DNA from: Eubacteriales bacterium
GTDB lineage: Bacteria; Bacillota; Clostridia; Christensenellales; Aristaeellaceae
Direction: 5' to 3'
Assembly (NCBI GenBank): GCA_029218505.1
Contig: JAQXRL010000095.1
Coordinates: 1 to 33,984, forward strand
DNA: 33,984 bases
The stretch's first letter is position 1; the number at the start of each line of letters is the position of its first letter. The translations under genes were made by a program, and so were the position numbers. The notes below the pieces were generated by a model that did no database searches, was not told where the DNA came from, and saw only the letters and a list, made by a program, of their open reading frames with translations. This document shows positions 11,882 through 23,150 of the stretch, in pieces.

Positions 11882-12604
11882 TCACTTCCGGGCGCGGCCC
11901 AGATACGCATCCCGCACCTTGGGATTGTTCAACAATTCCATGCCGCCGCCGGACATGGTAATGCGTCCGGTTTCCATGACATAGCCGTAATTTGCACATT
12001 TGAGCGCGGCGTTGGCGTTTTGCTCGATGAGCAGAATCGTGATTCCCTGCTGGGAGAGCCGCCGGATGATGGCGAAAATATCCTTTACCACCAGCGGCGC
12101 CAGGCCCAAGGACGGTTCATCCATCATCATCAGCTGGGGCCGGGTCATCAGCGCCCTGCCCACGGCCAGCATTTGCTGTTCGCCGCCGGAGAGCGTGCCG
12201 GCCAGCTGCCATTCCCGCTCCTGCAAACGCGGAAACATGGAATACACATATTCGATGTCCTGGCGGATTTGCGCGTCATCCTTGCGCAGATATGCGCCGA
12301 TTTTCAGATTTTCCAAAACCGTGAGATTGGAAAACACCCGCCGGCCCTCCGGAACCAAGGCGATGCCGGAAGCCACGATTTTTTGCGTATCCAGCTTTGT
12401 TATGTCCTTGCCCTGAAATTCGATTTTCCCGGCGGACGGCTTGACCAGGCCGCTGATGGCGCGCAAGGTTGTGGATTTGCCCGCGCCGTTGGCCCCGATG
12501 AGCGTCACAATGGAGCCCTTTTCCGCCACTTCAAACGAAACGCCCTTCAGCGCCTCGATTCCGCCATAGGATACCTTCAGGTTTTCCACCTTCAGCAGGC
12601 TCAT
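11882..12604 (-). CDS. livF: Branched-chain amino acid ABC transporter ATP-binding protein LivF
   Basis: 240 aa; Walker A GANGAGKST, signature LSGGEQQMLAVGRALM, operon context. Confidence 0.95.
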   Translation of the reverse strand: MSLLKVENLKVSYGGIEALKGVSFEVAEKGSIVTLIGANGAGKSTTLRAISGLVKPSAGKIEFQGKDITKLDTQKIVASGIALVPEGRRVFSNLTVLENLKIGAYLRKDDAQIRQDIEYVYSMFPRLQEREWQLAGTLSGGEQQMLAVGRALMTRPQLMMMDEPSLGLAPLVVKDIFAIIRRLSQQGITILLIEQNANAALKCANYGYVMETGRITMSGGGMELLNNPKVRDAYLGRARK

Positions 12605-13440
12605 TGATCGTCCACCCCCAGATATGCCGCAATTACGGCGGGATTGTCCTGAATTTCGGCGGGCGTTCCATGGGCAATGCGCTTGCCAAAATCAATGACG
12701 TATATGCGGTCCGAAATATCCATTACCAGGTTCATGTGGTGCTCAATCAAAAACACCGTTAAATCAAACTTTTCCTTGATGCTGCGAATGAAATCGCTCA
12801 GCTGCTCCGTCTCCTGAGGATTCATTCCGGCGGCGGGTTCGTCCAGCAAAAGCAGCTTCGGCTGCGTCGCCAGCGCCCGGGCAATTTCCAGATGCCGCTG
12901 CTTGCCATAGGGCAGAGAAGTGGCCAATTCATCCTTGCTGTCCGCCAGTCCCACGATTTCCAACAGCGCCATCGTCTCTTCCCGCATGCGCTTTTCTTCC
13001 GCATGATTCAGCCGCAGCGTTGCGGTGAACACATTGCTGGTGCGCCGCAAATGGGTTGCGATCAGCACGTTGTCAAACACCGTCTGCGTCTTGAACAGAC
13101 GAATGTTCTGAAACGTGCGGGCAATGCCCATGCGGGTAATTTTGTCCGGCGTCGGGTTGATTACCTTGGGAAATTTGCCCAGGTTTCCCCCGGCATACAG
13201 CTTCTTCATCTTGCCCTGAGGGTGATTCATCACGATGCACTTGTCCTGAAAATACACCGCGCCGTTCGTCGGCTCATATACGCCCGTTACGCAGTTGAAC
13301 GCCGTGGTCTTGCCCGCGCCGTTGGGGCCGATCAGCGCCACGATTTCTCCCTGGTTCACTTCCAGAGACAGGTCGTTTACCGCCACCACGCCGCCAAACT
13401 GCATGGTAACGTTCTCAATGCGCAATACATTGCCGCTCAT
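12601..13440 (-). CDS. livG: Branched-chain amino acid ABC transporter ATP-binding protein LivG
   Basis: 279 aa; Walker A GPNGAGKTT, GIARTFQNIRLF, EHHMNLVMDISDRIYVIDFGKRIAHGTP. Confidence 0.95.
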   Translation of the reverse strand: MSGNVLRIENVTMQFGGVVAVNDLSLEVNQGEIVALIGPNGAGKTTAFNCVTGVYEPTNGAVYFQDKCIVMNHPQGKMKKLYAGGNLGKFPKVINPTPDKITRMGIARTFQNIRLFKTQTVFDNVLIATHLRRTSNVFTATLRLNHAEEKRMREETMALLEIVGLADSKDELATSLPYGKQRHLEIARALATQPKLLLLDEPAAGMNPQETEQLSDFIRSIKEKFDLTVFLIEHHMNLVMDISDRIYVIDFGKRIAHGTPAEIQDNPAVIAAYLGVDDQ

Positions 13441-14498
13441 TTGATCGCCTCCTTGGGCAGTTTCCTGCGGCGAAACAGATCCGGCAGTTCTTTATCGCCC
13501 ATAATGCCCTTCCGATAAAACAGCACCACCACCATGATCACAACGGAAAACACCACCATCCGGAAGCCGGAACGCAAAAGCGGCACCTGAACGCCAAACA
13601 GGAACTGTTCCGTATCCAGAAAACGCAGCCACCATTCCGAGCAGGCGATAAACAGAAAGCTGGCCAGCACCGAACCGGTGATGGAACCCATGCCGCCGAT
13701 GACCACGATCAGCAAAATTTCATACGTCATGGCCACCTTGAAGGTGCTGGCCTGCACGCTGGCCTGATACATGGCCAGCAACGCGCCGCCCACGCCCGCA
13801 AAAAACGAGGAAATCACAAACGCCAGCTGCTTATGCCGCGCCAGATTGATGCCCATGGCCTCCGCGGCAATCTCGTCGTCCCGAATCGCCTTGAACGCCC
13901 GCCCATACGTAGAATTCATCAGCAGCACGATCAGGAACAGACACACCGCCACCACCGCGAAGGGAAACAGCACGGACGAAAACGTGGGAAATTTGCGCAG
14001 CAAATTCGATCCGTTGGTAAGCGGGCCGAACTTGTCATATTGCACCAGCGCCCGCAGAATTTCCGCGAAGCCCAGCGTGGCAATGGCCAGATAATCGCTC
14101 TTCAGCCGCAGCACCGGAAGCCCGATCAAATACGCAAACAGCGCCGCCATCAGCCCCGCCAACAGAATTGCCGCAAAGACCGGCAGCGCAAACTGCACGA
14201 TTCCGCCTTCATAATACTGATACACCGCCATTCTCTGCGCCACGGGAATGGTGGTGATGGCATATGTATACGCGCCGATCAACATAAATCCTGCCTGGCC
14301 CAGGGAGAACAACCCCGTAAAGCCGTTGAGCAAGTTCATGGATACCGCCAGGAGCGCGTAAATCACGCCCTTTTTCAGCACGGTAAACAGCATGGTGGAC
14401 TTGGGCAGCGTGTTTTCCAGCACCCACAGCGCCACAAACAGCACCGCAATGAGCGCCCCATACAGCATCAGCTTTGTCGCCTTTTTCACGCAAATCAC
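13437..14498 (-). CDS. livM: Branched-chain amino acid ABC transporter permease LivM
   Basis: 353 aa; LLNGFTGLFSLGQAGFMLIGAYTYAI; SDYLAIATLGFAEILR; RAFKAIRDDEIAAEAMGI. Confidence 0.95.
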   Translation of the reverse strand: MICVKKATKLMLYGALIAVLFVALWVLENTLPKSTMLFTVLKKGVIYALLAVSMNLLNGFTGLFSLGQAGFMLIGAYTYAITTIPVAQRMAVYQYYEGGIVQFALPVFAAILLAGLMAALFAYLIGLPVLRLKSDYLAIATLGFAEILRALVQYDKFGPLTNGSNLLRKFPTFSSVLFPFAVVAVCLFLIVLLMNSTYGRAFKAIRDDEIAAEAMGINLARHKQLAFVISSFFAGVGGALLAMYQASVQASTFKVAMTYEILLIVVIGGMGSITGSVLASFLFIACSEWWLRFLDTEQFLFGVQVPLLRSGFRMVVFSVVIMVVVLFYRKGIMGDKELPDLFRRRKLPKEAIK

Positions 14499-15404
14499 CT
14501 ACACCTTCTCGGAGAGCTTTTCGCCGAAGAGGCCCGTAGGCTTCACGACGAGAATCACAATGAGCAGCGCAAAGGTAAACGCGTCCGAAAACGTGGAATA
14601 CCCCAGCGCCTTGATGATATTTTCACAAATGCCAATGATGAACGCGCCCACCACCGCGCCGGGAATGGAGCCGATTCCTCCAAACACCGCCGCCACAAAG
14701 GCCTTCAGGCCCGGCATTGCGCCCACGGTGGGCGTTACGGTGGCGTAATTCGTGAAATACAGCATGGAGCCCACCGCCGCCAGAAACGAGCCGATGATGA
14801 ACGTCATGGAAATGACGGAGTTGATCTTGATGCCCATCAGCTGCGCCGTTTCAAAATCCTTGGACACCGCCCGCATTGCCATGCCGATCTTTGTGTGCTT
14901 GATCAGCATCACCAGCACAACCACCAGCGCAATGGTCAAAAACGGCGTAATCAAGGTCACCATCTTCGTGGTCGCGCCGCCAATGGTGACGGAATTGCTG
15001 ATAAAGGGAATCACCGGGTACAATTTCGCCAGGCCGCCGGTGACATACCATGCCAGATTTTGCAACAGATAGGACACGCCGATGGCGGAAATCATTACCG
15101 ACATGCGCGGCGCCGTTCGCAGGGGCTTATATGCCACCCGCTCCACGGTAAATCCCAGCAGCACCGTCAGCACGATTACCAGCGGAATCGCGACATACAA
15201 CGGCATCGCTGCGGCAATATACACCATAAAAAAACCCGCAATGGTGAAAATATCGCCATGGGCAAAATTGATCAAACGCAAAATGCCGTACACCATGGTA
15301 TATCCCACGGCGATCAGGGCGTATTGACCGCCCACCGAGATCCCCGCCAGGATATACGGCAGGTTCCTGCCGATAAATTCTCCAATCCCGCTGAAAAATT
15401 CCAT
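14499..15404 (-). CDS. livH: Branched-chain amino acid ABC transporter permease LivH
   Basis: MEFFSGIGEFIGRNLPYILAGISVGGQYALIAVGYTMVYGILRLINFAHGDIFTIAGF. Start trimmed to 15404 (GGGAGG about 7 nt upstream); the track start at 15485 lies across the intergenic hairpin. Confidence 0.95.
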   Translation of the reverse strand: MEFFSGIGEFIGRNLPYILAGISVGGQYALIAVGYTMVYGILRLINFAHGDIFTIAGFFMVYIAAAMPLYVAIPLVIVLTVLLGFTVERVAYKPLRTAPRMSVMISAIGVSYLLQNLAWYVTGGLAKLYPVIPFISNSVTIGGATTKMVTLITPFLTIALVVVLVMLIKHTKIGMAMRAVSKDFETAQLMGIKINSVISMTFIIGSFLAAVGSMLYFTNYATVTPTVGAMPGLKAFVAAVFGGIGSIPGAVVGAFIIGICENIIKALGYSTFSDAFTFALLIVILVVKPTGLFGEKLSEKV

Positions 15405-15471
15405 ACGCGAGCCTCCCAAGCAAAATTGTCGGCGCGGCAACCGGTCGCTGTCCTGTCCCGCGCCCAACGAA

Positions 15472-15501
15472 GCGGAGCGCGGCAAAACGTCCGCGCTCCG
15501 C
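15472..15501. other. GC-rich stem-loop between livJ and livH
   Basis: GCGGAGCGCGG (15472-15482)/CCGCGCTCCGC (15491-15501), 8-nt loop, no T-run. Confidence 0.75.
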
Positions 15502-15517
15502 CAAAGTTTCGCGACGC

Positions 15518-16687
15518 TTACTTCGCGATCTGGGTGGTGGTGAGGAAGGTGAAGGCATAGGCTTCGCCGTCCGCTACTTTGATGTACGCAATGTCTTTCT
15601 TGGCGTCGCCGTTTTCGTCAAACTCGATCAGGCCCGTGACGCCCTCCAGGGAAACGCCCGGCAGCGCCGCCGCAATGGACGCCGCGTCCACCGCGCCCGC
15701 CAGCTTGATGGCCTCCACGGCCGTCATGTACGCATCATAACCCAGCGCGGAAACCGCCGCCACGATGTCGTTGCCGCCGTTGTTGGTCATCTTGTCCGGA
15801 TTCGCGTTCAGCCATGCCTTGAAGCCGGAAACAAAGTCCGCCGCCAGGGTGCTGGCCTCGGTGTCGCTTTCATCGAAGAACGTGGAAAGATATACCTTCA
15901 ATTCCGTGCCCTTCACCGCGTCCAGAATTACGGAGGATTCCCAGGTATCGCCCGCGCAGAAGGGGATTTCCAGGTTCATGGAAGCCGCCTGGCCCAGAAT
16001 CAGGGACGCCGCCGTGGTGGAGCTGGGGCTGAAGATCACGTCCGCGCCCGCGTTCACCGCGTTGGCCAGATATGCGGAGAAATCAGAGTTGCCTTCCGGG
16101 AAGGTTTCCGCCACGATGGTGCCGCCCAGCTTTTCAAACGCCTTGGTGAAATAGTTCACCAGACCCGCCGAATAGTCGTCGCCCAGCTGATACAGCGTGT
16201 ACGCCGTCTTTGCTTCCAGCTTGCTGGCGGCAAAGTTGGCCATTACCTCGCCCTGGAAGGGATCCGTGAAGCAAATGCGCCAATACATGGCGTTGCCCAG
16301 CGTCACGCCCGGGTTCGTGCAGGAGCAGCCGATGGCCGGCACGCCCGCGTCCTCAAAGATCGGCGCGGCCGCCATTGCGGCGCCGGAGCCATAGGTGCCC
16401 AGCACCACGGCCACGTCCTGGCTCACCAGCGTCTGTGCCGCCGAGGGCGCCTTGTCCGCCGTCGTCTGGTTGTCTACTTCGTACAGTTCGATTTCATATG
16501 TAACGCCGCCCACTTCCACCGTGGGGCACAGTTCGTTTGCATAGCGAATGCCCAGGGTTTCCTGCTTTCCGCCGGCGCCGTTATCTCCGGATGCCGGTTC
16601 AAAGATTCCAATCTTGATGGTTTCCGCCATCGCGCTTGCAGACACGATGAGCATCAGGGCCAGACATAGCGCCAGGATTTTCTTCAT
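15518..16687 (-). CDS. livJ: Branched-chain amino acid ABC transporter substrate-binding protein LivJ/LivK-like
   Basis: 389 aa; signal peptide MKKILALCLALMLIVSASAMAE, IKIGIFEPASGDNGAGGKQETLGIRYA; first gene of the liv operon. Confidence 0.93.
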   Translation of the reverse strand: MKKILALCLALMLIVSASAMAETIKIGIFEPASGDNGAGGKQETLGIRYANELCPTVEVGGVTYEIELYEVDNQTTADKAPSAAQTLVSQDVAVVLGTYGSGAAMAAAPIFEDAGVPAIGCSCTNPGVTLGNAMYWRICFTDPFQGEVMANFAASKLEAKTAYTLYQLGDDYSAGLVNYFTKAFEKLGGTIVAETFPEGNSDFSAYLANAVNAGADVIFSPSSTTAASLILGQAASMNLEIPFCAGDTWESSVILDAVKGTELKVYLSTFFDESDTEASTLAADFVSGFKAWLNANPDKMTNNGGNDIVAAVSALGYDAYMTAVEAIKLAGAVDAASIAAALPGVSLEGVTGLIEFDENGDAKKDIAYIKVADGEAYAFTFLTTTQIAK

Positions 16688-17041: not shown

Positions 17042-18616
17042 ATGCAATTTGCGGAGATAATCAAAAACGCCTTTTCGGCGATGAACGGCATAACCAACGC
17101 GTTGGTATATCTGGCGATTTGCGCGCTGTTCGTTCTGGGCATCGTGAAATGCGTGGCGCCGGTGATCAGCACCAGGGGCATGCTCAGGCGGGCTGCCAGA
17201 TTGATCCGGCAGGGCAACAACGCCAAGCACAGTTGGCAGGAAGAGAAATTTCTGGGCAAAGGCGCGCTGTTTCCTCATTGGAGCGAATACTTAAACAACC
17301 TGTTTTTTGCGGACGGAGAATACCATAACGCCAGCAACGTGGAGGATTACATCAACGAAGAAACCGTCATTTACGGCCCGGGCCGGCAAGCCTTTGCGGA
17401 CGCGATTCCCGGGCTGCTGGTCTCGTTGGGATTTCTGGGCACGCTGATCGGTCTGGCCCAAGGCCTGTCCGGTTTCGACATGACGGATTCCTCCGCGGTG
17501 CAGGCTTCGATTGTCACGTTGATTCCCGGCATGCGCTATGCCTTCACCACATCCATCGTGGGCGTGGTTTGTTCCATTGCCTTCACGTTGATTTCCCGGT
17601 CCGTAAACGGTTCCACGCAGCACGCGTTGAAGTCGTTTTATGGCGCCATGAGCCGTTACGCCGGCGTTTTGAGCGTAGATCCCATGACGCAGATCGCCAT
17701 TTACCAACAGGAACAGACCGCCTTGATTCAAACCATGGCCAAGGATCTCAACGGCGCCTTTACCCAGCACATGGCGGAGGCCATGGCGCAAACGGTGGAG
17801 CCCATCCACCAGAGCTTGAAGAATTTCATCACCGTTTCCACCAAAGAACAGATGCGCCTGCTGGACGCGGTTGCCCAGCGCTTCGTGGACAGAACCGAGG
17901 AAATGTTCCAGGGAGAATTGCAGGGCCTTTCCGACGTTTTGAGCCAAACCAGCCGCCGCCAAAGCGAAGCCTTCCAGGCCGTGGACGAATCCATGCGCAA
18001 AGCGCGGCAGGTTTTGGAGTCCGTGGAGAAAATCGGCGCCTCCGCGGAGGAACTTTCCGACACGTTCAACGCCTATATAAAGAGCCTTTCCGCCAACCAG
18101 AGTCAGGTTGACGACGCATACGTGCGGATCTCCGGCAATGTGGAGCGCATGGATTTGATTTCCCGGCAGCAAACCAGTTATCTGAAAGCCGTTTCCTCCA
18201 TGCAGGCGGGCATTGCCAAGTCCATGGACGACATGCGCCAAAACCTGGCGGAATACACGCAAGCCGTATCCAACCAGCAGGCGTCCGCCAGCGAAACCCT
18301 TTCAAAGACCGCGGCAGATTTGCGGCAGGCCGGCAGCGAAATTGCCCATATGCACGCAAAGACCGCCGAATCCATGGATCGGGAGCTGAAGGATACCCTG
18401 GATGCCTTCGCCGAATACGCCACCCAATTCAACAAGCGGGTGGATTATCTGGCCAGTTCCATCGCCAATTCCCTGTCCCAGTTGCCGCGGGCCGTGGATG
18501 ATACCTCCGCGCAGCTGCTGGATCAGGTGGATCGCCTGGGCGCAACGTTGCGGGACGCGCAGCGCGCGCTGGACGACGCCGTGGACAGAATGTATAATCC
18601 TCGCGCAAACGTATAA
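17042..18616 (+). CDS. MotA/TolQ/ExbB-like motor subunit with long C-terminal helical tail (ZorA-like)
   Basis: 524 aa; IPGLLVSLGFLGTLIGLAQGLSGFD and SIVTLIPGMRYAFTTSIVGVVCSIAFTLI (TM3/TM4 of the MotA/TolQ fold), then about 330 aa of predicted helix. RBS GGGAGG. Confidence 0.88.
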   Translation: MQFAEIIKNAFSAMNGITNALVYLAICALFVLGIVKCVAPVISTRGMLRRAARLIRQGNNAKHSWQEEKFLGKGALFPHWSEYLNNLFFADGEYHNASNVEDYINEETVIYGPGRQAFADAIPGLLVSLGFLGTLIGLAQGLSGFDMTDSSAVQASIVTLIPGMRYAFTTSIVGVVCSIAFTLISRSVNGSTQHALKSFYGAMSRYAGVLSVDPMTQIAIYQQEQTALIQTMAKDLNGAFTQHMAEAMAQTVEPIHQSLKNFITVSTKEQMRLLDAVAQRFVDRTEEMFQGELQGLSDVLSQTSRRQSEAFQAVDESMRKARQVLESVEKIGASAEELSDTFNAYIKSLSANQSQVDDAYVRISGNVERMDLISRQQTSYLKAVSSMQAGIAKSMDDMRQNLAEYTQAVSNQQASASETLSKTAADLRQAGSEIAHMHAKTAESMDRELKDTLDAFAEYATQFNKRVDYLASSIANSLSQLPRAVDDTSAQLLDQVDRLGATLRDAQRALDDAVDRMYNPRANV

Positions 18617-18655
18617 TTTTACGTTCATTCTTCGTGAAAGAAAGCAGGTGAACAT

Positions 18656-19678
18656 TTGCGAAGCATGCGGAAAATTTCCCGACAGGGGTATCGGCCTTCC
18701 GGCGGAGAAAACAGCTTCTGGCTTAGCTTTTCCGACTTGATGAGCGCCCTGCTCCTGATCTTTATTCTGATCATGTTCTACATCATGTATCAGTATTTTG
18801 ATATGTATGAAATCTCCATGGCCGAAATTGCCCGGCAGCAGTTTGATCTGGATCAAGCCAATTCGGAACTGGCCAGCCAGCAGGAAAAGCTGACCCAGTC
18901 CGAACAGCAAATGATCGCCCAGCAGATTCGCCTGGACGCCGCCCAGAAGGATTTGGAGGATGCGGAAGCGATTTTGTCTTCCCAACAGGAAGAATTGAGC
19001 AAAGCGCAGTCCATGCTGACGGAAAAGGAAAATGAAATTGCCGCGCAACAGGAAGCGCTGGACGCGTTGAGCATCCAGTTGGGGCAGCAGCAAACCCAAA
19101 TTGCGGACCAGCAGCAGCAATTGGACAACCAACAGCAGCAAATTGAAGCCCTGGTAGGCGTGCGCACGAAAATCATTTCGGCGCTGTCTCAAGCGCTGCG
19201 CAGCGCCAACATCAACGCCATCGTGGACGGAGACACCGGCGCCATCACGCTGGAAAGCGACGTGTTGTTTTCCACAGGACAATCCACGCTGTCCGCGGAA
19301 GGCAAGCAGAAAATCGACGAATTTCTTCCCGTGTATCTGAACGTGCTGTTCTCTCCGGAATATTCCAGCTATATTTCCGAAATCATCATTGAAGGACACA
19401 CGGACACGACGGGCAGCTATCTGATGAATTTGAAACTGTCCCAGGACCGGGCGCTGGCGGTGGCCAGTTATGTGCTTTCGGACACATATGCCGGCATTAC
19501 CGCCGACCAGAAAACCCGGCTTCGGCAAATTTCCACCGCCAACGGCCGATCCTTTAGCGACGTTATTACGGTGGACGGCCAGGAAGATCGGGAAGCTTCC
19601 CGGCGCGTGGTGTTCAAATTCCGCCTGACCGACGAGCAGATGATTCAGCAGATGCAGCAAATTTTGGAAGCAAATTAA
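18656..19678 (+). CDS. OmpA/MotB-like motor subunit (ZorB-like) with long extracytoplasmic coiled-coil linker
   Basis: 340 aa; FWLSFSDLMSALLLIFILIMFYIMYQYF single TM with conserved Asp; Q-rich coiled coil about residues 50-175; C-terminal OmpA-like ESDVLFSTGQSTLSAEGK...IIIEGHTDTTGSYLMNLKLSQDRALAVASYVL. Probable TTG start (18656) behind AGGTG; alternative ATG at 18665. Confidence 0.88.
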   Translation: MRSMRKISRQGYRPSGGENSFWLSFSDLMSALLLIFILIMFYIMYQYFDMYEISMAEIARQQFDLDQANSELASQQEKLTQSEQQMIAQQIRLDAAQKDLEDAEAILSSQQEELSKAQSMLTEKENEIAAQQEALDALSIQLGQQQTQIADQQQQLDNQQQQIEALVGVRTKIISALSQALRSANINAIVDGDTGAITLESDVLFSTGQSTLSAEGKQKIDEFLPVYLNVLFSPEYSSYISEIIIEGHTDTTGSYLMNLKLSQDRALAVASYVLSDTYAGITADQKTRLRQISTANGRSFSDVITVDGQEDREASRRVVFKFRLTDEQMIQQMQQILEAN

Positions 19679-19698
19679 CATCAGGAAAAGGAGATATC

Positions 19699-20235
19699 AT
19701 GCTCTACCTTCGCAGATTTGTCTGGTTTGTGGCCAAATGGCTTCTGGGCGTCACCATTGCCCTGGGCGTTTTGGTTTGCGCATTTTATATGTGCCTGAAC
19801 ACCGCGAACATCTATATCGTCTTGAACGACGGGCTGGAAAAACGCGTGGACGTCATTCTCACCCAGGATGACGCACAGGAATTGAACAATTACTTTCACC
19901 ACGACTTTCTGAACGCCGATCCCGCGCTGGCAGGCGCCTTCAACGGTTCTTCCGTATATTCGGATTATGTCATCAGCGACTTCGAATACAAGCTCACCAT
20001 CGAACGGCTTTGGGCGTGGCCATGGGATGAATACGCCACCTGTTCCGTGGTGGAACGCGTGCCCCGCATTGAAGGCAAGGTTCGTTCTTCCCGGAAAAAC
20101 GAAGTCTCCGCGGAAATTCCCACCTGGCAGGGCGGCCGGTATGATTTGACGTTGGTGCGTTCCGGCGGAAAATGGAAGATCATCGGCATGCAGCAAACGG
20201 CCATCCTGATGGAGGCCGAAACCGAAGCCGAATAA
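19699..20235 (+). CDS. Small single-pass membrane protein, possibly with an NTF2-like extracytoplasmic domain
   Basis: 178 aa; one N-terminal TM, then a soluble domain ending GGRYDLTLVRSGGKWKIIGMQQ; RBS AAAAGGAG, 20 nt after the ZorB-like gene. Confidence 0.75.
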   Translation: MLYLRRFVWFVAKWLLGVTIALGVLVCAFYMCLNTANIYIVLNDGLEKRVDVILTQDDAQELNNYFHHDFLNADPALAGAFNGSSVYSDYVISDFEYKLTIERLWAWPWDEYATCSVVERVPRIEGKVRSSRKNEVSAEIPTWQGGRYDLTLVRSGGKWKIIGMQQTAILMEAETEAE

Positions 20236-20322
20236 ACCCATTCCCCGGATGGCGCCCAGTCGGATTTGGCGGCAGGTTCGTCAAGTCCGATCTTTTTCCG
20301 GAAAAACAAAGGAGGAATTCCC

Positions 20323-21411
20323 ATGGCGCGAATCGTTGTGGGCATGTCCGGCGGAGTGGACAGCTCCGTGGCGGCGCTGCTTGCCCATCGGCAGGGACAC
20401 GACGTCATTGGCGTATTCATGAACAATTGGGAAGAAAAGGATGATCGCGGCGTTTGCACTTCCCAGCGGGACTGGGATGACGTGCGGCGGGTATGCGACG
20501 TCATCGGAATTCCCTATTATTCCGTAAACTTCGCCAAGGAATATCGGGAACGCGTATTCGCCCACTTTTTGGAAGAATACCGGCGGGGACGCACGCCCAA
20601 CCCGGACGTATTATGCAACCGGGAGATCAAATTCAACGTCTTTTTGGATTTTGCCCAATCCCTAGGCGCAGAAAAGCTGGCCACCGGGCATTTCGCGCGC
20701 CTGGGCCGGCAGGGAGACGAATATCAATTGCTGCGCGCGCCGGACGAAAACAAGGATCAGACGTATTTTCTGTACATGCTGGGGCAACGCGCCCTGTCCA
20801 ACGCCATGTTCCCGGTGGGCGGCATGCACAAGGCAGAGATCCGAAACGTCGCCCACGAGGCAGGCATTCCCGTGTTCGACAAAAAGGATTCCACGGGGGT
20901 TTGCTTCATCGGCGAACGCAATTTTCGGGAATTTTTGTCCCATTATCTGCCCGCCACGCCGGGAAAGATGGTCGACACCCATGGCAACGCGGTGGGGGAG
21001 CACATGGGCCTGATGTACTATACCCTGGGGCAGCGCCGCGGACTGGGCATCGGCGGCAGCGGCGACGGCCGGCGCTGGTTCGTGGTGGAAAAAAACCTGC
21101 GGGACAACGTGCTGGTGGTGGATCAAGGCGAAGATTCGCCGCTGCTGTATTGCCGCCAGGCTCTGTGTTCCCAGGCGACCTGGATCGCCGGACATCCGCC
21201 CGTGGAAGAGGGCGTTCCCATGCCCTGCAAGGCGCGAATGCGCCATCGCCAGCCCTTGCAGGACGCTGTTGCCACCATCCTGGGCGATCAGGTGCAAATT
21301 TTCTTTCCCACGCCACAGCGCGCCGTTACGCCAGGGCAATCCGCCGTGCTGTACGCGGACGACGTTTGCCTGGGCGGCGCTATCGTGGATGAAACCCGAA
21401 GGGAGATTTGA
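20323..21411 (+). CDS. mnmA: tRNA 2-thiouridylase MnmA
   Basis: MARIVVGMSGGVDSSVAALLAHRQGHDVIGVFMNNWEE; PNPDVLCNREIKF; KKDSTGVCFIGERNFREFL; YYTLGQRRGLGIGG; RBS AAAGGAGG. Track start (20266) too early. Confidence 0.97.
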   Translation: MARIVVGMSGGVDSSVAALLAHRQGHDVIGVFMNNWEEKDDRGVCTSQRDWDDVRRVCDVIGIPYYSVNFAKEYRERVFAHFLEEYRRGRTPNPDVLCNREIKFNVFLDFAQSLGAEKLATGHFARLGRQGDEYQLLRAPDENKDQTYFLYMLGQRALSNAMFPVGGMHKAEIRNVAHEAGIPVFDKKDSTGVCFIGERNFREFLSHYLPATPGKMVDTHGNAVGEHMGLMYYTLGQRRGLGIGGSGDGRRWFVVEKNLRDNVLVVDQGEDSPLLYCRQALCSQATWIAGHPPVEEGVPMPCKARMRHRQPLQDAVATILGDQVQIFFPTPQRAVTPGQSAVLYADDVCLGGAIVDETRREI

Positions 21412-21508: not shown

Positions 21509-21560
21509 TGCGATTAGATATACATATTCAAAAATGAATCCATGTTGGGAGGCTGTTCTT

Positions 21561-23150
21561 ATGGATCGGAAAACCAGAACCTGGCTGATTGTGCTGGTAG
21601 CGCTTTTGATTGCGGCAATCACAGGCGGCGTGGTCTTCAAAAGCCAGCTCTCTGCCGCAGAGGCAAAGCTGGCCTCCGCGCAGGCTCTGGAACAGGAAAG
21701 CGCCCAGGCTGTTGAAGCGTTGCGGGCGGAAATGGACGAGAAACAGCAGGCATTGGACGAGCAAACCGTTTCCAATGCCGCATTGAGCGAACAAATTGCT
21801 CAATTGCAGGCCGAAGCAGAAAGCCTGCAATCCCAGATCGACAAAAAGCAGCAGGAATTAGAAGCGCAGATTGATTCCAATGCGGCCGAAAGCGAAGCCT
21901 CACAGGCGCAGTTCGCCGCCGCACAAGAGGAAATCGCGATGCTGAAAGCCCAGGCGGAACAATCTCAAACGCAAATTGACGAACTGACGGACAAGTTGGC
22001 GCTGCAGGACGCTTACGCGCAAGCGCTGGAAGCGCAGTTGGCGCAGGAATCCGCCGCTTCCGAAACGTTGCGCCAGGACTTGGCCCAAAGCCAAGCCGAC
22101 GTCGCCAGCCTCACCGCTTCCTTGCAGGAATTGGAGCCCGTTACCGAGGAAAACAAGGCGCTGATCGCATCGCTGGAATCGGAACTTCAGCAGGCATACG
22201 CCTCTCTGGCAACCCTGGAAGCGCAAATCGTACAGCCTACGCCTGACGCCACGCCTGCGCAGACCGCCGCCATTTCCAAAACATGGGCCCGCGGCGCGCG
22301 GCAGCTGATCTCCATTCAGGAGCGCATGGCAGCCCTGCTTCACAGCGACGACGAGGAACTCAGCGACGCAAGCAAGCTGGAGGGCCTGGCGCAGCTGCTG
22401 ACGGAGCTAAAAGCCTGCGTCGCCGCCCTTACCGCCGACCAGGAGACTGCGCCCGCGCCGGACGACGCCGCGCTGGAAGCACAGCTTTCCGCCGCCAATG
22501 ACGTTATTGCCAATTTGCAGCAGCAAATTCAGGCAGGCGACGCCACCATCCGTTCCTTGGAAGAACAAATTGCCCAGAACGCCCAGGAACAGGAAACCCT
22601 GAAGCAGGAAATTGCGTTGGCGCAACAGGAACAGGCCAAGACCGCGGAACAAGAGGCCGCCATCGCGGACATGAACAAGGAATTGTCCGCGCTGAACGAT
22701 ACGGTATCGCTTTTGCAGAACAGCCTGGATGCGGAAAAAGACACCGTGGCCCAGCTGCAGACCCAATTGGAGGCGGCTCTGGCGCAATATGAGCGCGTTC
22801 TGGCCGAATTGCGCGCCTATCGCATTTCCCGCGAATTGGCCGCCGGCGAAGCATACACCTCCACGGAAACCGTCAACGCCATTACCATTGCCAAGGACGG
22901 CGTTACAGGCATTTGGAAGTTCACCAACATGGCCATCAGCGGTCACGACGTGGTGTTGGAAATCATCATGGACGATCAGGTGCTTTACACATCCCAGCCC
23001 ATCGCTCCAGGCGAATCCATCGACACCATCGTGCTGAACGCGCCGCTGGCCACCGGAACTTACGATGCCATGGTATTCACCAAGACATATGCCGCGGATG
23101 GCTCCTACCAGAGCGGCACTCGCACCCCCATTACCCTGATTGTGGAATAA
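21561..23150 (+). CDS. TM-anchored coiled-coil protein with C-terminal Ig-like/beta domain
   Basis: MDRKTRTWLIVLVALLIAAITGGVVF, then about 400 aa of Ala/Gln/Glu-rich coiled coil, then VNAITIAKDGVTGIWKFTNMAISGHDVVLEIIMDDQVLYTSQPIAPGESIDTIVLNAPLATGTYDAMVFTKTYAADGS. RBS GGGAGG. Confidence 0.85.
   Translation: MDRKTRTWLIVLVALLIAAITGGVVFKSQLSAAEAKLASAQALEQESAQAVEALRAEMDEKQQALDEQTVSNAALSEQIAQLQAEAESLQSQIDKKQQELEAQIDSNAAESEASQAQFAAAQEEIAMLKAQAEQSQTQIDELTDKLALQDAYAQALEAQLAQESAASETLRQDLAQSQADVASLTASLQELEPVTEENKALIASLESELQQAYASLATLEAQIVQPTPDATPAQTAAISKTWARGARQLISIQERMAALLHSDDEELSDASKLEGLAQLLTELKACVAALTADQETAPAPDDAALEAQLSAANDVIANLQQQIQAGDATIRSLEEQIAQNAQEQETLKQEIALAQQEQAKTAEQEAAIADMNKELSALNDTVSLLQNSLDAEKDTVAQLQTQLEAALAQYERVLAELRAYRISRELAAGEAYTSTETVNAITIAKDGVTGIWKFTNMAISGHDVVLEIIMDDQVLYTSQPIAPGESIDTIVLNAPLATGTYDAMVFTKTYAADGSYQSGTRTPITLIVE

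What the first reader, a model, noticed from the sequence alone, without database searches (positions are those of the whole stretch)
17042..20235. Zorya-AB-like ion-motor operon without recognisable Zorya effectors
Seen: a MotA/TolQ-fold protein with about 330 aa of helical C-terminal tail, immediately followed by an OmpA/MotB-like subunit with a single TM carrying SFSDLM, then a small TM protein 20 nt downstream. Established: Zorya defence uses ZorA (MotA-like, long intracellular tail) and ZorB (OmpA-like stator) plus cytoplasmic effectors (ZorC/ZorD or ZorE). Here the next genes are a small membrane protein and mnmA; no helicase, nuclease or ZorC-like ORF is visible. Inference: a stand-alone PMF-driven 5:2 motor, with the third gene as a possible novel partner; it could act in envelope maintenance, signalling or defence.
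Basis: partly seen in the sequence, partly recalled or inferred. Interest (0 to 1): 0.82.

Follow-up and report, generated by a model that had tools for sequence, protein, structure and literature searches.

The report
Housekeeping cousin of Zorya defence motor
A large family of unflagellated gut Clostridia carries, as a nearly universal single-copy gene set, an ion-driven membrane motor related to the anti-phage Zorya motor but without its DNA-attacking parts, so the motor probably serves the cell envelope rather than phage defence.

Summary
ORFs A (524 aa, MotA/ZorA-like, ~320-aa helical tail), B (340 aa, one TM with Asp27 in SFSDLM, long linker, OmpA-type domain) and C (178 aa, one TM) are real genes. 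Zorya ZorA and ZorB are the nearest known relatives, not flagellar MotAB or ExbBD, but curated Zorya cut-offs are missed. There is no Zorya effector beside the genes, and no ZorC-type protein in 150 genomes of the same family.

New here: the pair is a core gene. B occurs in 141 of 150 family genomes (83 of 86 good ones) and is nearly always their only MotA/ExbB-type motor, in bacteria without FlhA (0/60) or Omp85 (0/60). Its Asp/Thr/Ser ion site is invariant. B is followed directly by a small TM protein in 78 of 79 readable loci: in 47 an NTF2-like one (the window's C), in 31 an unrelated Ig-like one. Most genomes carry both, the unlinked one elsewhere.

C is not exclusive to the motor: 65 genomes of other families in the order have it, mostly beside dus-greA-lysS.

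Best reading: a Zorya-type 5:2 motor kept for envelope work. The motor is well supported; what it does is inferred.

The parts
17042..18616 (+). A: ZorA/MotA-like wheel subunit, 524 aa: TM/pore domain about 1-200, then a helical cytoplasmic tail. Pore residues Thr134 (codon 17441-17443) and Ser171 (codon 17552-17554).
   Evidence: Pfam MotA_ExbB 25.1 bits; PADLOC ZorA1 87.8 bits; PDB 8qyk ZorA E 4.8e-8 over 102-203; T134/S171, aligned to E. coli ZorA T147/S184, in all 70 family sequences with a residue at that column
18656..19678 (+). B: ZorB/MotB-like axle subunit, 340 aa: TM with Asp27 (codon 18734-18736), Gln-rich linker about 46-168, OmpA-type (peptidoglycan-binding) domain about 170-338
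   Evidence: OmpA 40.7 bits; PADLOC ZorB1 233.5 bits; PDB ZorB 8qyd_F E 7.3e-21, 8vvi 2.6e-18, 8vvn 3.9e-12; Asp in all family loci
19699..20235 (+). C (C-I): N-terminal TM helix plus extracytoplasmic NTF2-like domain, 178 aa
   Evidence: AlphaFold2 mean pLDDT 87; Foldseek NTF2-like 2r4i E 2.7e-4, probability 1.00; directly after B in 47 of 79 readable loci
20323..21411 (+). mnmA, neighbour only, in one sub-clade; not part of the module
   Evidence: tRNA_Me_trans 264 bits; mnmA in 29 of 81 loci (80 plus window), one sub-clade only
21534..23150 (+). E: N-terminal TM, long coiled-coil-like region of variable length, conserved C-terminal domain; possible accessory, sub-clade only
   Evidence: family of 26 loci including the window; stays next to A-B-C where mnmA is missing in L026 and L029

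Best explanation
A and B form a peptidoglycan-anchored, ion-driven 5:2 motor that descends from, or is sister to, the motor of clostridial type I Zorya. In this family of Gram-positive-type Clostridia it is a fixed, vertically inherited housekeeping machine without Zorya effectors. Proposed mechanism: ions pass between B-Asp27 and the A-Thr134/Ser171 ring (inferred from invariant residues and known structures). The B dimer is held to the cell wall by its OmpA-type domain across the linker, and the pentamer of A turns with its long cytoplasmic tail. The motion acts on, or reports on, the state of the wall. Two single-pass membrane proteins with extracytoplasmic domains (C, NTF2-like; and an Ig-like protein, C-II, encoded elsewhere in this genome) dock on or regulate the motor outside the membrane. 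Shown by computation: the genes, their conservation, the ion-site residues, core distribution, linkage and missing effectors. Inferred: 5:2 assembly, rotation, docking of C and C-II, envelope role.
For: Nearest known proteins are ZorA/ZorB. Close B relatives outside the family include true clostridial type I Zorya loci L167 and L168 (A-B-ZorC-ZorD, 39% identity in the OmpA-type domain), which lie on short branches near the family in the B tree (deep order unresolved). Ion-site residues are invariant. Core: B 141/150, MotA_ExbB 140/150, mostly single copy; A, B, C distances track mnmA (r 0.88, 0.85, 0.89; none of 500 permutations as high). No effector: flanking genes vary and no helicase, nuclease or ZorC family recurs among the clusters listed; ZorC family 0/150 with positive controls ringing. 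No flagellum or outer-membrane marker: FlhA 0/60, Omp85 0/60, controls ring. A small TM gene lies directly after B in 78 of 79 readable loci, 47 NTF2-like and 31 Ig-like, while other neighbours change. Both small proteins occur in most genomes (140/150, 130/150).
Against: No experiment and no complex model. C occurs in 65 genomes of other families, mostly with dus-greA-lysS, where B was seldom found, so it has some role without this motor; the same may hold for C-II, whose wider spread was not tested. C-II relatives in genomes where C-I is the linked gene match only moderately (46-94 bits) and could be paralogues. Deep branches of the B tree are unresolved, so descent from Zorya rather than the reverse is not shown. 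A fixed defence system is not excluded.
Confidence: 0.6

Rival explanations
1. It is a real but unrecognised Zorya-type anti-phage system whose effector is encoded in trans or is one of the small proteins; it became fixed in the family.
For: A and B are closest to Zorya subunits; Zorya effectors are known to vary (ZorC/D, ZorE, ZorF/G; PMC8565338, PMC11890865).
Against: Near-universal, mostly single-copy vertical inheritance; no conserved nuclease, helicase or ZorC partner in linkage or, for ZorC, in 150 genomes. The linked partners are predicted extracytoplasmic, not DNA-acting.
Confidence: 0.15
2. A and B are a motor, but C is only a housekeeping passenger that came to lie in the operon and does not take part.
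For: C is widespread in the order without strong B homologues, mostly in a dus-greA-lysS cluster.
Against: C stays directly behind B in 47 loci while the other neighbours change. In the other clade another single-TM extracytoplasmic protein has taken exactly the same slot.
Confidence: 0.25
3. A-B is an ion channel or wall-tension sensor that signals inward through the A tail without doing mechanical work on the envelope.
For: The A tail ends in a stretch that is conserved better than the middle of the tail (about 455-515), as expected for a cytoplasmic docking or signalling site.
Against: Known relatives with the same Asp/Thr/Ser site are rotary 5:2 machines or are thought to be (PMC9389320, PMC11890865). 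Nothing here separates sensing from work.
Confidence: 0.2
4. It is a flagellar MotAB or an ExbBD/TolQR system.
For: Shared MotA_ExbB fold.
Against: FlhA 0/60 and Omp85 0/60; three rather than four hydrophobic segments in A; B has an OmpA-type domain; best hits are Zorya.
Confidence: 0.03

Closest known systems
Zorya type I ZorA/ZorB (E. coli 8qyd; Shewanella 8vvn) and clostridial type I Zorya (L167, L168)
   Same: A: MotA-like core, same Thr/Ser pore residues, long helical cytoplasmic tail. B: W-x-S-x-S-D-L-M-type transmembrane motif and homologous OmpA-type domain.
   Different: No ZorC or ZorD; near-universal core gene; long Gln-rich linker in B; followed by a small NTF2-like or Ig-like TM protein; below NCBIfam Zorya cut-offs.
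Zorya type II ZorA/ZorB (8vvi; Psychrobacter and Vibrio plasmid loci L184, L187)
   Same: Same fold and ion-site residues.
   Different: Separate clade in the B tree; ZorE HNH effector absent next to A-B.
Flagellar MotAB
   Same: 5:2 motor superfamily, Asp in the B TM, OmpA-type domain in B.
   Different: No flagellar export gate in the family; A has three hydrophobic segments and a long tail.
TolQR-Pal / ExbBD-TonB
   Same: A is a MotA_ExbB protein; a third single-TM protein in the operon is a possible functional parallel to TolA/TonB.
   Different: No outer-membrane marker; B has its own OmpA-type domain; predicted folds of C and C-II are NTF2-like and Ig-like.
Clostridial A-B-TPR modules (L174, L175, L177, L180, L181)
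   Same: ZorAB-like pair with an unrelated third gene directly after B.
   Different: Third gene is a soluble-looking protein, TPR in those with a Pfam hit; B only 23-25% identical to the window's.

Membership tests
Zorya anti-phage system | ZorA: MotA-like pore plus long cytoplasmic tail | tested here: met
Zorya anti-phage system | ZorB: TM Asp plus peptidoglycan-binding OmpA-type domain | tested here: met
   (sequence homology; binding itself not tested)
Zorya anti-phage system | Curated NCBIfam ZorA/ZorB cut-offs | tested here: not met
   A 74.8 vs 100 and 54.6 vs 700; B 88.6 vs 400 and 57.7 vs 400 bits
Zorya anti-phage system | Effector genes in the operon: ZorC+ZorD, ZorE, or ZorF+ZorG | tested here: not met
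   No recurring helicase, HNH or ZorC-like neighbour family in 80 loci; ZorC family 0/150 while G560 and G527 ring. ZorD, ZorE, ZorF and ZorG were not searched genome-wide.
Zorya anti-phage system | Patchy distribution typical of defence systems | tested here: not met
   141/150 genomes, 83/86 good ones, 47/50 genera
Zorya anti-phage system | Protection against phage | not testable with these tools
   needs an experiment
5:2 ion-driven motors (superfamily) | Acidic residue in B TM facing Thr/Ser ring of A | tested here: met
   Asp in B of all family loci; T134 and S171 in all 70 A sequences with a residue there; the facing geometry is inferred from homologues
5:2 ion-driven motors (superfamily) | A5B2 stoichiometry and rotation | not testable with these tools
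   only single-chain prediction was available
Flagellar MotAB | Flagellar apparatus in the same genomes | tested here: not met
   FlhA (PF00771) 0/60, controls ring
ExbBD / TolQR | Outer membrane | tested here: not met
   Omp85 (PF01103) 0/60, controls ring
NTF2-like superfamily (protein C) | NTF2-like fold | tested here: met
   AlphaFold2 pLDDT 87; Foldseek top hits NTF2-like, E 2.7e-4; predicted model only

The most novel reading that the evidence does not exclude
A further working class of 5:2 motor: a Zorya-type motor serving as an essential or near-essential envelope machine of Gram-positive-type bacteria, acting through two different single-pass extracytoplasmic partners, each of which took the same operon slot in a different lineage.
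Probability: 0.35. Interest if true: 0.82.

Novelty: new variant of a known kind. Interest (0 to 1): 0.64.

Why it matters
ZorAB is known as a defence machine, and 5:2 motors with a known job serve flagella, the outer membrane, gliding/secretion or phage defence. A core ZorAB-like motor in bacteria that show none of these implies an unknown, widely kept job for ion-driven motion at a Gram-positive-type wall. It also raises whether Zorya was built from a housekeeping motor or the reverse, and warns that a ZorA/ZorB hit alone should not be annotated as phage defence.

Tried and rejected
Flagellar or Ton/Tol assignment: rejected (best hits are Zorya). Complete Zorya: true clostridial Zorya loci (L167, L168) show what that looks like, and the window lacks it. 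Homology between the two third genes: none found (hhalign) and different predicted folds. C as a dedicated motor subunit: my own reading, withdrawn when one search showed C in other families. Hidden further components beside unlinked C or C-II: none recurring apart from housekeeping genes. Heptad periodicity of the B linker: no stronger than shuffles, so a coiled coil there is not shown. Promoter/terminator scan: nothing decisive; a terminator-like hairpin at 20259-20291 may separate C from mnmA. Direction of descent between Zorya and this motor: B tree unresolved.

Full report
Observation. The three ORFs are as described. A (17042-18616) has a MotA_ExbB domain above Pfam's cut-off, and its last 300 residues hold 3 Pro and 8 Gly, with strong 3.5-3.6 periodicity in hydrophobicity. 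B (18656-19678, TTG start) has one TM with SFSDLM (Asp27) and an OmpA-type domain. C (19699-20235) starts 20 nt after B and has no family match above cut-off. mnmA and a coiled-coil TM protein (E) follow.

Nearest relatives. PADLOC ranks ZorA1 (87.8 bits) and ZorB1 (233.5 bits) first. PDB sequences give E. coli ZorA over residues 102-203 (E 4.8e-8) for A, and E. coli, Sulfuricurvum and Shewanella ZorB for B (E 7e-21, 3e-18, 4e-12). The latter two are the Zorya II and I structures of PMC11890865. NCBIfam's Zorya cut-offs are all missed.

Ion site. PMC11890865 describes the ZorB Asp packed against a ring of Ser/Thr of ZorA. In my alignment the equivalents are A Thr134 and Ser171, opposite E. coli ZorA T147 and S184 (that these two are the E. 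coli pore residues is from memory; the alignment is). Both are present in all 70 family sequences with a residue there, and the B Asp is present in every family locus examined. A useful contrast is the f73 pair, where B lacks the Asp and A has Ser/Ala.

Distribution. In 150 genomes of the window's family (unnamed handles; related GenBank records include Candidatus Pullichristensenella, Faecivicinus and Excrementavichristensenella) B is found in 141, in 83 of the 86 that are at least 90% complete and at most 5% contaminated, and in 47 of 50 genera. MotA_ExbB is found in 140 and is almost always single. In 187 sampled genomes of other families of the order only three have a strong B match. In the class, other ZorAB-like pairs occur: true type I Zorya with ZorC and ZorD (L167, L168), pairs with a TPR-type protein, and short pairs without a third gene. 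In 21 loci with mnmA alongside, A, B and C distances correlate with mnmA distances at 0.88, 0.85 and 0.89 (none of 500 permutations as high), which fits vertical inheritance; these loci are a sub-clade and mnmA is linked there.

Linkage. In 80 loci from GenBank species genomes the gene directly after B was classed: 47 NTF2-like (C-I, the window's type), 31 Ig-like (C-II), one neither (L049), one cut by the contig end (L033). Flanking genes vary, and no helicase, nuclease or ZorC-like family recurs among the clusters listed. hhalign finds no relation between C-I and C-II. AlphaFold2 gives C-I pLDDT 87, a long N-terminal helix plus an NTF2-like domain, and C-II pLDDT 92.7, a TM helix plus an Ig-like beta-sandwich. 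Positive charges before the TM place both domains outside the cell (inference).

Both small proteins together. Profile searches find C-I in 140 and C-II in 130 of the 150 genomes, usually one copy each. In the window's genome C-II is at G000:C62:32973-33440, away from A-B. In the three-contig genome G024, A-B-C-II lies at 2.53 Mb and C-I at 0.44 Mb. Unlinked copies have no recurrent neighbours other than housekeeping genes such as polA or dus.

A correction. C-I also occurs in 65 genomes of other families of the order, where B was seldom found; in most fetched loci it lies beside dus and often greA and lysS. That is probably its older place, so C-I was drawn to A-B in one clade and C-II in the other. 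This lowers the claim that C is a motor subunit. It leaves the observation that two unrelated membrane-anchored extracytoplasmic proteins occupy the same slot behind the motor in different lineages, which I read as functional coupling (inference, about 0.6).

Negative tests with controls. ZorC family (EH_Signature) 0/150, with G560 and G527 ringing. FlhA 0/60 and Omp85 0/60, with controls ringing. So there is no sign of a flagellum, an outer membrane or ZorC. ZorD, ZorE, ZorF and ZorG were checked only as neighbours.

Phylogeny. The B tree groups C-II-linked B proteins (99/69), type II Zorya (100/91, the Prevotella pair just outside) and TPR-linked B proteins with two relatives (97/87). Clostridial type I Zorya, f73 and the family's two groups meet at an open node, so the direction of descent is not resolved.

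Mechanism and verdict. The most likely reading is a wall-anchored 5:2 ion motor of ZorAB type kept as housekeeping equipment, with C and C-II as extracytoplasmic partners and an envelope role. Motor nature is strongly supported by homology and invariant ion-site residues; the non-defence reading by distribution and missing effectors; the envelope role and the partners are inferred. In the papers I could search I found no description of such a core, effector-less ZorAB system, but most subscription journals are not in that library.

Noticed in passing
L164-L166 (genomes G676, G540, G595): ZorAB-like pair with the ion site lost (no Asp in B, Ser/Ala in A), followed by a weakly EH_Signature-like protein, between aroE and type IV pilus genes in three related genomes: an ion-dead Zorya-like remnant or a new use.
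   Followed up: partly
L174, L175, L177, L180, L181: ZorAB-like A-B-TPR-type three-gene modules in several other clostridial families; not described in the papers read.
   Followed up: partly
window 21534-23150: E: N-terminal TM, coiled-coil-like region of variable length (487-734 aa overall), conserved C-terminal domain; stays beside A-B-C even where mnmA is absent (L026, L029).
   Followed up: partly
L185 (Prevotella plasmid NZ_CP091789.1): ZorAB-like pair followed by an unknown protein and an FtsK-type translocase.
   Followed up: no
G016:C59, G086:C331, G003:C129, G111:C25: Second, diverged B copies inside much longer open frames (562-810 aa) in a few genomes of the family, some with a second MotA-like match.
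   Followed up: no
L243-L262: C-type NTF2-like TM protein, beside dus and often greA-lysS, in many families of the order: an unannotated order-wide envelope protein.
   Followed up: partly
window 11882-16687, - strand: Ordinary branched-chain amino-acid ABC transporter cluster (two ATPases, two permeases, binding protein), judged from the translations.
   Followed up: no
L186 (MT837639.1): Unverified 'Bacteriophage sp.' faecal contig of 6.5 kb with a B-like ORF (38%); may be bacterial DNA.
   Followed up: no
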